Shown: piece by piece, positions 1-3,024 of the stretch
How the letters are laid out: the number at the start of each line of letters is the position of its first letter
Numbering within the stretch: position 1 is the stretch's first letter
IMG/VR virus record: IMGVR_UViG_3300048928_000316
Coordinates: 1 to 33,069 of that record
Length of the DNA stretch: 33,069 nucleotides
Strand: one strand, 5' to 3'
Source: a virus
Translations under genes and position numbers: made by a program
Notes under the pieces: model-generated
Told to the model about the DNA's origin: nothing
What the model saw: the letters and a program-made list of their open reading frames with translations, nothing else
The model's database searches: none

Positions 1-19
1 CGGGACATTGATCGTTTGA

Positions 20-93
20 GGCCGAGTAGCAAAATGGTTATGCAGCGGATTGCAAATCCGCCTACGCCGGTTCGATTCCGACCTCGGCCTCCA
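20..93 (+). tRNA. tRNA-Cys (GCA)
   Basis: A complete 74-nt cloverleaf with CCA encoded. The acceptor stem pairs GGCCGAG (20-26) with CTCGGCC (83-89), followed by the U discriminator typical of tRNA-Cys and CCA at 91-93. The anticodon loop reads TTGCAAA with anticodon GCA, and the T-loop TTCGATT is present. This is host DNA and the likely integration target: the phage genes begin just downstream and the integrase lies near this end. The matching attR copy would be beyond the right edge, so the exact att core cannot be seen here. Confidence 0.95.
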
Positions 94-102
94 CTCTTAA
101 AA

Positions 103-133
103 CCCCGTAGATCAACGATCTACGGGGTTTTTT
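103..133 (+). terminator. Rho-independent terminator after tRNA-Cys
   Basis: A perfect 11-bp stem pairs CCCCGTAGATC (103-113) with GATCTACGGGG (117-127), with a 3-nt loop and a run of six T (128-133). It directly follows the tRNA 3' end and ends that transcript. It may be host sequence or part of the phage-carried identity segment. Confidence 0.9.
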
Positions 134-460
134 ATTGCCCGCGATTTATGATCGTTTCCGCAACTTTGAACATCGTTTCCGCAACTGCTGTCTTTTTGCT
201 GGACGAAACCTCTTCCTTACCGGCACAGACTGCGAAGATTTAAGGTGTTTTCAGGGGCCCCATGACAGCAATCCTGCAGTCGGAGGTGTGCCTAATTAAT
301 AATTCCTGTTGCTGTAGTCACATTGCCAGCATAAGCTCACGGAAAAATCGATGTGAGATTTTTGCGGTGTTGAAAAGTCAGGCCGCGCTACCGAGAGCTA
401 GGCTTGCAGTTAGGCCATATAGATCCTGCCAGAGAGCGGACATAAACAGGGACGTCAGTT
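134..460 (+). other. Non-coding segment between tRNA and first prophage gene (attL region)
   Basis: No convincing gene is present; the short open frames here overlap the tRNA or lack ribosome sites. It holds a 15-bp direct repeat (151-186) and a 7-bp inverted repeat AAAAATC/GATTTTT (343-349 and 357-363) nested in CTCAC/GTGAG arms. The ribosome site AGGGA (448-452) of the next gene is at its end. No clear -35/-10 pair was found. It most likely contains the left attachment site plus the control region of the two-gene operon at 461. Confidence 0.5.
151..186. repeat. 15-bp direct repeat, 21 bp apart, near attL
   Basis: ATCGTTTCCGCAACT occurs at 151-165 and again at 172-186, start to start 21 bp, which is two helical turns. 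No other copy was noticed in the window. Its place between tRNA-Cys and the prophage genes fits integrase arm-type binding sites, but a repressor site for the downstream operon or a remnant of a mobile-element end is equally possible. Confidence 0.6.
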
Positions 461-1390
461 ATGCACGCAATTGCTCCATACTCCATACGGTTTTTTGACC
501 CGAACAGCGCTGCAAAAAAAATCGAGGATAGATATTCAAAGCTTGATAAAGTTGGCGCTTACGACGCTTTCAAAGTGCTGGTAGATTATTTCAATAGAGT
601 TGATGACAAGTTCGTCATCGCTGAAGATACCAAGCAAGTTTTCAGATTCAAGGGCATGACGATTTATGCAGCACAGCGGCAAGTTGCCGGATGGTTTGAG
701 GTTGGAAGCTATGGTGTAAAAAATGACATCATTGACATCAAAACAGGTAAGGTTGACTATGAAAAGACGCAGGAAAACGCAGAGATAATTAGGCACTATG
801 TAAGGTTTTTTGTGCCGGCTGGTTTTAATGAAGGAATTGCCTTGCTTCACAGTTTTAAAGGAGCAGGAATAAAAACGCTATTGCATGATTTGCTTCGGGC
901 CGAGTTTCAGAAAATAACAAAGCTAAATTTACAGATGAATCCTTTGGCTTACAAAAAAGCATTTGTAAGCTGGGAGAATGCTAAAGCTAAAGAAATAAGG
1001 CTGACAAAGTTTGAGGGTATGAACGATCTAACAGATCAAATAAAAAAGTTAGGGCATAAAGAACAGCAGTTGATTATTAAGCCTCCGAGTCGGTCATCCT
1101 TAGGTCAGTTTAAAGATTACTTGGATCCTAACAGCGAAAAGTACCAGGTTGTCGAATATCTGTCTCCAATGTGCGCACATGTTAAAATAGTGGTAGAGCT
1201 CGGGGATAAGCGCCGAACGTTTACAATTGGTCGACCAGCAGACGAGCAGGTCTGTGAAATTGCTATCGATGAAGAAGATGTAGATTTCGTTGCAGGAAAC
1301 CCTGTGGCGAAATCATTGCACGAATGGTGTACTATAGTTTTGCAGGACCTAGCGGATGCCCTATATCCTAAGATGGGAGTGAAGGTATGA
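461..1390 (+). CDS. Hypothetical soluble protein, candidate sensor of a RexAB/Kiwa-like two-gene exclusion system
   Basis: A 309-aa protein without signal peptide or membrane segments. I do not recognise a named domain. The middle (about residues 105-145) has hydrophobic strands followed by a helix-rich stretch; the rest alternates charged helices and strands. ATG 461 is chosen because AGGGA lies 8 nt upstream. The stop overlaps the next start in ATGA, so the two genes are translationally coupled. The size (RexA is about 280 aa, KwaB about 315 aa) and the four-helix membrane partner recall phage-exclusion pairs such as lambda RexA-RexB or Kiwa KwaA-KwaB. This rests on architecture only, with no demonstrable sequence match. 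The gene is clearly AT-richer than the phage core and lies between the tRNA and integrase, a usual site for lysogenic-conversion cargo. Confidence 0.75.
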   Translation: MHAIAPYSIRFFDPNSAAKKIEDRYSKLDKVGAYDAFKVLVDYFNRVDDKFVIAEDTKQVFRFKGMTIYAAQRQVAGWFEVGSYGVKNDIIDIKTGKVDYEKTQENAEIIRHYVRFFVPAGFNEGIALLHSFKGAGIKTLLHDLLRAEFQKITKLNLQMNPLAYKKAFVSWENAKAKEIRLTKFEGMNDLTDQIKKLGHKEQQLIIKPPSRSSLGQFKDYLDPNSEKYQVVEYLSPMCAHVKIVVELGDKRRTFTIGRPADEQVCEIAIDEEDVDFVAGNPVAKSLHEWCTIVLQDLADALYPKMGVKV

Positions 1391-1926
1391 GTAGCAAAGT
1401 AAATGTCACTGATATCTTCTTAGGGCATATTGCTACCCTGTCTGACCCTGAGGGCAAAAGATCCATCGGCGATTACATTACCTTCTTTCTAGTCCCTGGA
1501 TTGGTTGCGGGGCTAGGTTTGTTAGCGGGCTACAATTTAAATAAAGATGTTGCATCGATGCTTGTCAATTTTGGCGCCATTTTTACTGCGTTATTATTAT
1601 CGGTTTTGGTGCTTGTTTATGATCAAGAAAGTAAGCTGGAGGCGAATAAAGAGTTAGATGCACTATATACGCCAAAAAAAACTCTTCTTGGTCAGTTGTA
1701 CTATAATATCTGCTTCTCAATCCTGAGCTCTATTGTGCTTGTGGCGTTATGTTTTGTACATTCTGTTGTCTTTAAATTAGTGCAGGATTTTGGGTCTGGA
1801 GATGCAATATTTCACTTTAGTTATGCTAGATACTTAGTTACCCCTTTGGTGATTTTTGTGACGGCGAATTTATTGCTCACCATTGTTATGATTGTGAAGC
1901 GAATGCACGCGATGCTGACGATTTAA
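1387..1926 (+). CDS. Four-helix membrane protein, candidate effector partner (RexB-like topology)
   Basis: A 179-aa integral membrane protein with four predicted helices at about residues 31-48, 55-78, 103-130 and 148-171. A charged cytoplasmic loop (about 79-102, DQESKLEANKELDALYTPKK) lies between helices 2 and 3. There is no signal peptide. Its start overlaps the stop of the upstream gene (ATGA) behind the ribosome site GTGAAGG. Topology and position second in the operon match RexB of lambda (144 aa, four helices, ion channel in the lambda exclusion system) and broadly resemble KwaA of Kiwa, although Kiwa genes come in the opposite order. No family assignment is claimed. It is AT-rich like its partner and converges on the integrase gene 33 bp away. 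Confidence 0.75.
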   Translation: MSSKVNVTDIFLGHIATLSDPEGKRSIGDYITFFLVPGLVAGLGLLAGYNLNKDVASMLVNFGAIFTALLLSVLVLVYDQESKLEANKELDALYTPKKTLLGQLYYNICFSILSSIVLVALCFVHSVVFKLVQDFGSGDAIFHFSYARYLVTPLVIFVTANLLLTIVMIVKRMHAMLTI

Positions 1927-1959
1927 ATAGCTGGTTTGTGAGTCAGCACAGCGGCGATG

Positions 1960-3024
1960 TCACTTCTTGGGTTTCACAATTTCACCAACCCTTCGATACA
2001 CCTTCTTGGTCATTTCTTCGGAGGAGTGGCCGAGCAAGCGACTGGCATGAGTCAATTCAATCTCGCTGGCCGCTTTAGGCCGTATATCCTTGAATTGAAA
2101 CTGGCGAATCAGTACGGCCAGGGGGGAGTCGCCATCGGCTGCTGCTTTGATGGCGGCTTTCTCGCGGGCTTCGTCCCAGCGATTCCGTAACATCTGCTGG
2201 CTCATCCGAAGGCCCGAGGTGTTAGTAATAAGTCTTGAAGTCTTGATGCCGCTCAAGGCTCTGCGCTCCTGCAGGTCATCGATAAAAGCGCTTAGCGCTG
2301 ATTGCACGCCAGCATCTTCTAGCCGAAGGCGCAGTTTCTTTTCGGTTTTGCCTTGGTTGACCAACAAGAATCCCGCGTTCAAGTCGGTGGTGGCCACCTT
2401 GAGTACGTCGGCCGGTCGCTGACCTGTCAGGTAAGCGAGGTCCATGGCGTCCTTGAGTTCCTGAACTGCTTGGCTGTACACGGCGCTCCACACGATATCG
2501 CCTGCGTAATAGTCCCGTGGTTTTTCCTTGTTGCGTCGCACACCGAAGCAGGGGTTTGCGTTGCTGGTCAGGCCCCACTCACGCGCGATCGTGAATATAT
2601 GCGAGAGCAGTGCAATTTCACGATTGGCCCTGACTTTCGCGGTCCGGGCATCCCGGTACTGCGCGACCACCTGAGGTGTTATCGAATCAATGGGGGCCAT
2701 TTCAAACGCTTTTCTGAGCTGTTTGAGTTCCTTCATGTTGTCCGACTGGGTGCGCAATCCTTTGGTCGGGATTATCTCTTTCACGTACCTGTCGAACAGG
2801 GAGCCCAGCAGGTGGGTGGGCTTCGGGGGCGTTCGCTGCTCCAGCCTGGCCCATTCCACTTTAGCCTGGTCGAGATCGCGGCCCAGAGGAATCTCTTTGC
2901 GCTTGCCGTTGGCGTCCCTGCCATTGTAGTAATAACCCGTCCAAATCTTTCCGCTCTTGAGCGTGGCGTTGCGGCGGATCATCCGTGGTGGAAGATCCAG
3001 GTTGGCTGCATTTTTCCGGCGCAT
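1960..3024 (-). CDS. int: Tyrosine recombinase, phage integrase
   Basis: 354 aa. It catalyses site-specific integration and, with an excision factor, excision of the prophage. An N-terminal basic arm-binding/SAM-like part (1-165) is followed by the catalytic domain. Visible active-site residues are Arg203 in GQRPAD, Lys226 in the beta-hairpin GKTEKK, Arg315, His333 in RLLGHSS and the Tyr343 nucleophile in KVYRR. The HxxR box reads KDIR, so its His is a Lys (312), a tolerated variant in this superfamily. The gene is last in the leftward early operon, 3 bp after the DUF4224 gene, and points toward the tRNA-Cys end, as expected for an attL-proximal integrase. Confidence 0.93.
   Translation of the reverse strand: MRRKNAANLDLPPRMIRRNATLKSGKIWTGYYYNGRDANGKRKEIPLGRDLDQAKVEWARLEQRTPPKPTHLLGSLFDRYVKEIIPTKGLRTQSDNMKELKQLRKAFEMAPIDSITPQVVAQYRDARTAKVRANREIALLSHIFTIAREWGLTSNANPCFGVRRNKEKPRDYYAGDIVWSAVYSQAVQELKDAMDLAYLTGQRPADVLKVATTDLNAGFLLVNQGKTEKKLRLRLEDAGVQSALSAFIDDLQERRALSGIKTSRLITNTSGLRMSQQMLRNRWDEAREKAAIKAAADGDSPLAVLIRQFQFKDIRPKAASEIELTHASRLLGHSSEEMTKKVYRRVGEIVKPKK

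What the first reader, a model, noticed from the sequence alone, without database searches (positions are those of the whole stretch)
461..1926. Two-gene soluble + four-helix membrane operon beside attL: possible RexAB/Kiwa-like exclusion system
Seen: a coupled pair (309 aa soluble, 179 aa with four hydrophobic helices and a charged loop between helices 2 and 3), AT-rich and separate from the phage core, between tRNA-Cys and int. Known: lambda RexA-RexB and Kiwa KwaA-KwaB are both made of a soluble sensor/effector and a four-helix membrane protein, and prophages carry such cargo near att. Inference: an unnamed or divergent phage-exclusion module. The gene order (soluble first) follows RexAB rather than Kiwa. 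I do not recognise either protein by sequence.
Basis: partly seen in the sequence, partly recalled or inferred. Interest (0 to 1): 0.8.

Follow-up and report, generated by a model that had tools for sequence, protein, structure and literature searches.

The report
RexAB-type phage-exclusion gene pair
A prophage carries a two-gene cargo, a DNA-sensor-like protein plus a four-helix membrane protein, that resembles lambda's classic RexAB phage-exclusion system and belongs to a large, unnamed family spread over prophages, plasmids and apparently an integron.

Summary
In detail: two genes overlapping by 4 nt (309-aa soluble protein, 461-1390; 179-aa protein with four membrane helices, 1387-1926) lie AT-rich between tRNA-Cys and a convergent integrase. 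They are a strict unit: of 70 relatives found with the membrane gene, 69 have the soluble gene directly upstream, on P2-like and lambdoid prophages, Pf filamentous phages, plasmids and one apparent integron cassette. Pfam, NCBIfam and PADLOC name neither protein; PHROGs lists both as unknown. The soluble protein's predicted fold has one PDB match at E <= 0.001, lambda RexA; a second aligner also ranks RexA first (Z 9.6), tied with Iml3, a known RexA fold relative. A profile comparison with RexA beats all 150 shuffles, though its absolute probability is low (26%). The membrane protein shows no detectable homology to RexB. Kiwa gets no clear support. A functionally proven RexAB-type pair of P. 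putida (Sci Rep, January 2026) is probably kin, but its sequence was not held. Most likely this is a RexAB-type abortive-infection module: the RexA-fold protein senses phage DNA and triggers the membrane effector. The function of this pair is inferred, not shown.

The parts
20..93 (+). tRNA-Cys(GCA), presumed integration site at the left end of the prophage
   Evidence: ARAGORN; its 3' end occurs only once in the window, so the attachment role is inferred
99..131 (+). perfect 15-nt inverted repeat followed by a T run, probable terminator of the tRNA gene
   Evidence: the repeat finder I1, sequence; the terminator scan listed no site in 1-3000
94..460 (+). leader region of the pair, presumably with its own promoter; holds a 15-nt perfect direct repeat (151-165, 172-186)
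   Evidence: none of the 4 promoter-like sites listed for 1-3000 lies here; the promoter is inferred
461..1390 (+). RexA-fold soluble protein, 309 aa; presumed DNA-binding sensor
   Evidence: ORF; phrog_15676, unknown function; AF2 model pLDDT 80, Foldseek lambda RexA E 2.4e-5; hhalign vs RexA profile score 34.1, 150 shuffles reach at most 24.1
1387..1926 (+). four-helix membrane protein, 179 aa; presumed effector (RexB-like role, no detectable RexB homology)
   Evidence: ORF; phrog_15250, unknown function; four hydrophobic segments; AF2 pLDDT 86; H14, P37, Q80, K83, N107, K171, R172 identical in 46 of 46 aligned sequences, D79 in 43 of 46
1960..3024 (-). tyrosine integrase, convergent with the pair (neighbour, not part of the module)
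   Evidence: phmmer to lambda integrase structures, E 1.1e-10

Best explanation
The pair is a RexAB-type phage-exclusion (abortive infection) module carried as prophage cargo. SUPPORTED by computation: a RexA-like predicted fold in the soluble protein, a four-helix membrane partner, near-constant pairing, mobility across element types, and purifying selection. INFERRED: the soluble protein forms a DNA-binding dimer that recognises DNA or DNA-protein intermediates of an invading phage. It then contacts the cytoplasmic face of the membrane protein, most likely the conserved D79-Q80-x-x-K83 patch after helix 2, where the helix 2-3 loop begins. The membrane protein opens a pore or damages the inner membrane, growth stops and the infection aborts, so the prophage and neighbouring cells survive. 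The pair is probably expressed in the lysogen from its own promoter, not from the repressor operon as in lambda.
For: Foldseek: lambda RexA (8twq) is the only PDB hit at E <= 0.001 (2.4e-5, prob 1.00) for the soluble model. VIA ranks RexA first, Z 9.6 over 224 residues, then Iml3 8.8, CENP-N 7.7, RdgC 7.3; in the viral library one of the six hits at E <= 0.001 is called 'recombination-associated protein'. The RexA structure paper reports RdgC and IML3/CHL4 as RexA's structural relatives. hhalign of 35 relatives against a 7-sequence RexA profile scores 34.1; 150 column shuffles reach at most 24.1, and the aligned segment covers the LQMNPL and IKP motifs. Coupling: soluble gene upstream in 69 of 70 scan loci and 9 of 9 Pseudomonas loci; 4-nt overlap in 62 of 85 loci measured; r = 0.90 over 741 locus pairs, maximum of 300 permutations 0.27. 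Element range: Pf inoviruses, Acinetobacter plasmids, 5-6 kb Col-type plasmids, E. coli lambdoid prophages, apparent integron cassette. In Pf phages PfAC11 and PfAC08 the slot that holds the pair in PfAC16 holds a protein noted SeAvs3 and IetAS. A RexAB-type pair of P. putida with the same layout excludes phages, its RexA binds DNA and its RexB damages membranes (PMC12894663).
Against: No match to Pfam RexA or RexB at E <= 1. The RexA profile finds nothing in four genomes that carry this family, while it does find RexA in 3 other genomes. The fold evidence is not overwhelming: TM-scores to RexA are 0.35 and 0.39, the overlay has rmsd 12.9 A over 224 residues, RexA and Iml3 differ by less than 1 in Z and so count as tied, and RdgC (7.3) is tied with unrelated PR-10-type folds (7.2). 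The hhalign result depends on the alignment: probability 0.6% with lambda RexA alone, 2.7% (score 25.0) with the first alignment, 25.8% only after diverged relatives were added. The membrane protein shows no homology to RexB above 60 shuffles, and scores higher with KwaA (18.0) than with RexB (13.4), both within noise. The pair is not in a repressor operon in this window. The isoelectric point of the soluble protein is near neutral (8.2; family median 7.7, range 5.3-9.6), so DNA binding is not evident from charge. No exclusion data exist for this pair.
Confidence: 0.74

Rival explanations
1. Addiction or toxin-antitoxin module: the membrane protein is a toxin and the soluble protein its antitoxin, stabilising prophages and plasmids; phage exclusion is a side effect or absent.
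For: Two coupled genes with one membrane protein, found on small plasmids that also carry toxin-antitoxin pairs. In the mycobacteriophage Butters system the membrane protein holds the cytosolic one in check (stated in PMC12894663).
Against: The soluble protein has a RexA-like predicted fold. In the P. putida analogue the soluble protein triggers, not neutralises, the membrane protein.
Confidence: 0.09
2. Prophage housekeeping: an RdgC-like DNA-binding protein that modulates recombination, replication or the lysis-lysogeny switch, with the membrane partner as anchor; no defence role.
For: RdgC is among the fold matches and lambda RexA also biases the lytic switch (PMC11077077 abstract).
Against: The pair also occurs on plasmids, Pf phages and in an apparent integron cassette, and in Pf phages it shares a slot with known defence systems.
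Confidence: 0.08
3. Kiwa-like system (KwaA/KwaB).
For: Same general layout: a four-helix membrane protein and a soluble partner of about 300 aa. The membrane family scores 18.0 with a two-sequence KwaA alignment, exceeded by only 1 of 60 shuffles.
Against: No Pfam family matched the soluble protein at E <= 1, although KwaB is PF16162. hhalign with KwaB scored 11.0, below the shuffle mean of 13.3. Gene order is reversed.
Confidence: 0.04
4. Entry-type superinfection exclusion: the membrane protein blocks DNA injection at the inner membrane and the soluble protein only regulates it.
For: Four-helix, presumably inner-membrane protein on prophages.
Against: Constant pairing and co-divergence with a RexA-fold partner fit an internal sensor better; in the P. 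putida analogue both genes are needed and membrane damage follows activation.
Confidence: 0.05

Closest known systems
Phage lambda RexAB (Pfam RexA PF15969, RexB PF15968)
   Same: Soluble-then-membrane gene order; RexA-like predicted fold of the soluble partner; four membrane helices in the partner; remote profile similarity to RexA above shuffles.
   Different: No Pfam RexA or RexB match; membrane partner with no detectable RexB homology and 35 residues longer; located between tRNA and integrase, not in the cI operon; genes overlap by 4 nt where lambda has a 15-nt gap.
RexABpp, PP_5643-PP_5644 of P. putida prophage P1 (PMC12894663)
   Same: DALI match to RexA 8TWQ Z 8.8 there and VIA Z 9.6 here; four-helix partner with no HHpred homologue there and no known family here. 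Of the RexBpp residues named in the paper, W25 recurs in 6 of 7 sequences of the 187-aa Pseudomonas subgroup, F35 and S145 in 2 of 7. Y181 falls on a column that is His in 7 of 7 there and, in my reading of sequences printed, Tyr in some other relatives.
   Different: Its sequence was not held. L55, T103 and G153 occur in 0 of 7 of the subgroup, and no locus matches more than two of the seven residues, so kinship is likely but unproven. It lies downstream of a CI-like repressor, two genes apart.
Sbash gp30/gp31 and CarolAnn gp44/gp43 (PMC6426596, passages read)
   Same: Soluble protein plus four-helix membrane protein on prophages; N and C termini and the loop between helices 2 and 3 of gp31 predicted cytoplasmic; loop residues R70 and D73 of gp31 are needed for defence, comparable to conserved D79, Q80, K83 here.
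   Different: Actinobacteriophage proteins, RexA-like partners of 372 and 370 aa (PMC11077077 passage); sequence relation to this family not tested here.
RdgC (E. coli)
   Same: Among the fold neighbours of the soluble protein (2owl Z 7.3, rmsd 7.0, 210 aligned).
   Different: A recombination protein of the bacterium; Z is tied with unrelated folds in the same list.
Kiwa KwaA-KwaB
   Same: A four-helix protein and a soluble protein of similar size.
   Different: No relation by Pfam or by hhalign beyond the shuffle range; opposite gene order.

Membership tests
Lambda RexAB | RexA two-domain RdgC-like fold in the soluble protein | tested here: met
   Foldseek E 2.4e-5, only PDB hit at E <= 0.001, TM 0.35/0.39; VIA rank 1, Z 9.6, rmsd 12.9, 224 aligned, tied with Iml3 at 8.8. 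Predicted model only, pLDDT 80.3.
Lambda RexAB | Match to Pfam RexA (PF15969) | tested here: not met
   No Pfam family at E <= 1 for the 309-aa protein; lambda RexA itself scores 1e-97.
Lambda RexAB | Profile-level sequence relation to RexA | tested here: inconclusive
   hhalign score 34.1, E 7e-4, probability 25.8%; 0 of 150 shuffles reach it (max 24.1); earlier alignments gave 0.6% and 2.7%.
Lambda RexAB | Membrane partner homologous to RexB (PF15968) | tested here: not met
   No Pfam RexB match at E <= 1; hhalign score 13.4, 60 shuffles reach 17.4.
Lambda RexAB | Four membrane helices in the partner; soluble gene first | tested here: met
Lambda RexAB | Co-transcription with the cI repressor | tested here: not met
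   Neighbours are tRNA-Cys and a convergent integrase.
Lambda RexAB | DNA binding, partner activation, phage exclusion | not testable with these tools
   Needs bench work.
RexABpp (P. putida) | Sequence homology of both proteins with PP_5643 and PP_5644 | tested here: inconclusive
   Sequences not held; residue positions named in the paper fit one subgroup in part, but no locus matches more than two of seven.
Kiwa | Soluble protein in the KwaB family (PF16162) | tested here: not met
   No Pfam match at E <= 1; hhalign with two KwaB sequences 11.0 against a mean of 13.3 for 60 shuffles.
Kiwa | Membrane protein related to KwaA | tested here: inconclusive
   hhalign with two KwaA-position sequences 18.0; 1 of 60 shuffles is higher, 22.2. 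No PADLOC model at E <= 1.
Kiwa | Gene order membrane then soluble | tested here: not met
   Soluble gene first in the window and relatives; membrane-type ORF first in the two KwaB loci L149 and L150.

The most novel reading that the evidence does not exclude
RexA/RdgC-fold DNA sensors have been wired to unrelated four-helix membrane effectors more than once. This family's effector is not a RexB relative but a separate membrane-damaging module, possibly a ninjurin-like bundle that ruptures the membrane instead of acting as a small ion channel. The basis is thin: no RexB homology, a NINJ1 fold match at Z 12.0, rmsd 1.8 over 104 residues, which is below the tool's own caution level of about 13 for helical bundles, and enzyme leakage from a small part of the cells without measured depolarisation in the P. 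putida analogue.
Probability: 0.13. Interest if true: 0.8.

Novelty: new member of a known kind. Interest (0 to 1): 0.5.

Why it matters
The authors of the P. putida study count only five described RexAB-like systems (PMC12894663). This pair opens a family with about 49 distinct members at 90% identity in the first scans, in many gammaproteobacterial genera and on several kinds of mobile element. None of the libraries searched here names either protein. How the Rex system is triggered has been open for about 70 years. Natural variants, including ones resident in E. coli prophages, would let sensor-effector swaps and conserved-residue tests address that. It also marks genes now annotated 'hypothetical' on Pf phages and plasmids as probable defence cargo.

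Tried and rejected
Pfam, NCBIfam and PADLOC scans of both proteins gave nothing credible. The P-type ATPase hit of the membrane protein (E 0.0016, 16 bits against a cut-off of 431) is most likely a membrane-composition artefact. PDC-M18B at 1.3e-4 in 2 of 46 members was not pursued. PDB by sequence gave 0 matches for the soluble profile and two weak ones (E 0.045 and 0.6) for the membrane profile. The membrane model's Foldseek list has no hit at E <= 0.001; neither RexB nor KwaA was among the rows shown, which shows nothing either way.

Kiwa was tested as a rival and disfavoured, with only two Kiwa loci as material. An attR was sought and not found; an 11-nt repeat at 405 and 33035 is within chance.

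I tried to find the P. putida RexBpp sequence through the seven residues named in the paper, in loci from three viral scans, the one genome scan and the 9 Pseudomonas genomes with a match, and failed. The first attempt had a script error that kept most entries from being scored. A further scan returned seven loci, six of them on contigs already seen; the seventh, L158, ends inside the membrane gene.

Neighbour defence genes were tallied without a background rate, so no enrichment is claimed. Among 120 neighbours the 25 listed PADLOC families of 146 include type III restriction, methyltransferases, bSEFIR, PDC-S35 and PDC-S06; Pfam listed 2 CAP12/Pycsar TIR matches. The script printed 149 neighbours of 41 loci and I submitted the first 120.

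For these the confidence went from 0.76 to 0.74, Kiwa from 0.03 to 0.04, entry block from 0.04 to 0.05, and kinship with RexABpp from 0.7 to 0.6.

Full report
OBSERVATION. The second protein has four hydrophobic segments, averaged over 46 sequences, and a charged stretch between the second and third. The pair is 40.7% GC against 58.4% for 1960-33069. Upstream is tRNA-Cys, 20-93. Downstream, 33 nt away and convergent, is a lambda-type integrase, 1960-3024 (-). No second copy of the tRNA 3' end lies in the window, so 'attL' is plausible but unproven. The record is a 33,069-base virus contig. Over 10000-32000 its nearest phage record is a Pseudomonas phage, 86% identity over 54% of the query.

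A STRICT PAIR ON MANY KINDS OF ELEMENT. A scan of genome contigs with the membrane protein alignment gave 23 loci, and a scan of viral contigs gave 47. In 69 of these 70 the soluble gene lies directly upstream. The exception is L063; in L023 and L048 the soluble frame is split, and in L025 the membrane gene runs off the contig. The set is redundant: at 90% identity 49 distinct soluble and 49 distinct membrane proteins remain, window and annotated records included. In a further search, 9 of 398 Pseudomonas genomes have the membrane gene, each time with its partner. The 4-nt overlap recurs in 62 of 85 loci measured, near-identical copies included. Identities of the two proteins across 39 loci correlate at r = 0.90 over 741 pairs, while 300 label permutations reach at most 0.27. 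Both genes are under purifying selection.

The pair sits on two Pf filamentous phage records, on four Acinetobacter plasmids and on two 5-6 kb mobilisable plasmids of Serratia and Kluyvera. In E. coli, 22 of 5426 genomes carry a near-identical copy of the L060 pair; in the three opened it lies in a lambdoid prophage, opposite to its neighbours, beside a hok gene. In one gammaproteobacterial MAG the pair follows a divergent ORF that I read by eye as an integron integrase. It is followed by an attC-like hairpin (z = -8, 0 of 200 shuffles as stable) ending in GTTAGGC; the strict RYYYAAC core was not found. Among 120 neighbour proteins scanned, 7 match phage integrase, 5 the P2-type tail hub gpD and 4 S24 repressors.

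In PfAC16 the pair fills the slot between the left end and the repressor. In PfAC11 that slot holds a protein noted SeAvs3 and in PfAC08 it holds IetAS. The Pf phage paper's table lists a toxin-antitoxin system and PfsE for PfAC16 (PMC11878078, passages read), not this pair.

WHAT THE PROTEINS ARE. No Pfam, NCBIfam or PADLOC family credibly describes them, and PHROGs has both as families of unknown function. The soluble protein was modelled from an alignment of 35 sequences (pLDDT 80.3). Against the PDB a single chain passes E <= 0.001: lambda RexA, 2.4e-5, probability 1.00, TM 0.35/0.39; the next is 2.9e-3. In the second aligner RexA is again first (Z 9.6, 224 residues, rmsd 12.9). The high rmsd suggests two domains set at a different angle; that is my reading. 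The RexA structure paper reports RdgC and IML3/CHL4 as RexA's structural relatives, a hinged two-domain build and non-specific DNA binding (PMC11077077, abstract and passages); that CENP-N corresponds to CHL4 is recalled. RexA and its published fold relatives heading the list is hard to ascribe to chance.

At sequence level, a profile of 35 relatives against 7 RexA proteins scores 34.1; 150 column shuffles reach at most 24.1. The aligned part runs through a 'LQMNPL' strand and an 'IKP' strand found in both. This alignment was made after weaker ones: lambda RexA alone gave 0.6% and the first family alignment 2.7%. The probability given by hhalign is still only 25.8%, so I treat this as support, not proof. 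Standard RexA and RexB models do not detect the pair.

The membrane protein shows no relation to RexB beyond 60 shuffles. Its closest fold match, NINJ1 (Z 12.0, 104 residues), is under the caution level for helical bundles. Identical in 46 of 46 aligned sequences are H14, P37, Q80, K83, N107, K171 and R172; D79 in 43 of 46. In the Sbash system, loop residues R70 and D73 between helices 2 and 3 are needed for defence (PMC6426596, passages). The D79-Q80-K83 patch, at the start of the equivalent loop, is therefore my candidate contact site.

HOW IT PROBABLY WORKS. The nearest tested precedent is RexABpp of P. putida (PMC12894663; abstract and sections on identification, similarity, two-hybrid, overexpression, discussion and bioinformatics read). 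There both genes are needed for exclusion. The soluble protein binds DNA and resembles RexA (DALI Z 8.8). Its overproduction makes the four-helix partner stop growth and permeabilise membranes of part of the cells, without measured depolarisation; a two-hybrid test did not show the two proteins binding. Whether that pair belongs to this family could not be settled. Its sequence was not held, and the residues named in the paper fit one subgroup here only in part. I estimate kinship at about 0.6. By analogy, the window's soluble protein senses DNA or DNA-protein intermediates of an incoming phage and triggers the membrane partner, which aborts the infection. The steps after folding and pairing are inference.

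RIVALS. Kiwa is not supported by family or gene order. Its KwaA comparison is inconclusive: 18.0, with 1 of 60 shuffles higher, which is above the RexB score of 13.4 though both are within noise. An addiction module, a recombination or switch modulator, or an entry block remain possible at low probability; the range of elements and the Pf slot argue for defence.

NOVELTY. It is a new, unnamed branch of a known kind, the RexAB-type systems, of which the P. putida authors counted five. Searches for RexA, RexB and RdgC, for RexA and RexB with Pseudomonas and prophage, for RexAB with homolog terms, and for PP_5643 and PP_5644 showed, among the titles and abstract starts listed, no paper that describes this wider family. 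The library lacks most subscription papers and all bioRxiv preprints.

Noticed in passing
L030:5838-8663: A gammaproteobacterial MAG has the pair as what looks like the first cassette of an integron: divergent integron-integrase-like ORF upstream (read by eye), pair, then an attC-like hairpin (DNA fold z -8) ending in GTTAGGC.
   Followed up: partly
L079, L080, L081: In three E. coli lambdoid prophages the pair lies in reverse orientation beside a hok gene; 22 of 5426 complete E. coli genomes carry it, annotated hypothetical in 15 of 15 rows listed.
   Followed up: partly
L002, L151, L152: One left-end slot of Pf filamentous phages holds this pair, a protein noted SeAvs3, or IetAS in different phages, so it may be a defence hotspot worth mining.
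   Followed up: partly
window 151-186: Perfect 15-nt direct repeat ATCGTTTCCGCAACT, 21 nt apart (two helical turns), between tRNA and pair; could be integrase arm or regulator sites.
   Followed up: no
L023, L048, L136, L063: Possibly decaying copies: soluble frame split in L023, L048 and L136, and no recognisable soluble gene in L063.
   Followed up: no
L016: A Phycisphaerae MAG carries a copy 55% identical to the window's membrane protein; probably a misbinned or contaminating proteobacterial contig.
   Followed up: no
   Followed up: partly
J02459.1 (L082): The lambda record as held labels rexA and cI also as 'rexb (exclusion;144)'.
   Followed up: no
L114-L118, L142-L144: A diverged Pseudomonas subgroup with a longer membrane protein (210-215 aa) and an expanded loop between helices 2 and 3; its soluble proteins are 24-28% identical to the window's where measured.
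   Followed up: partly
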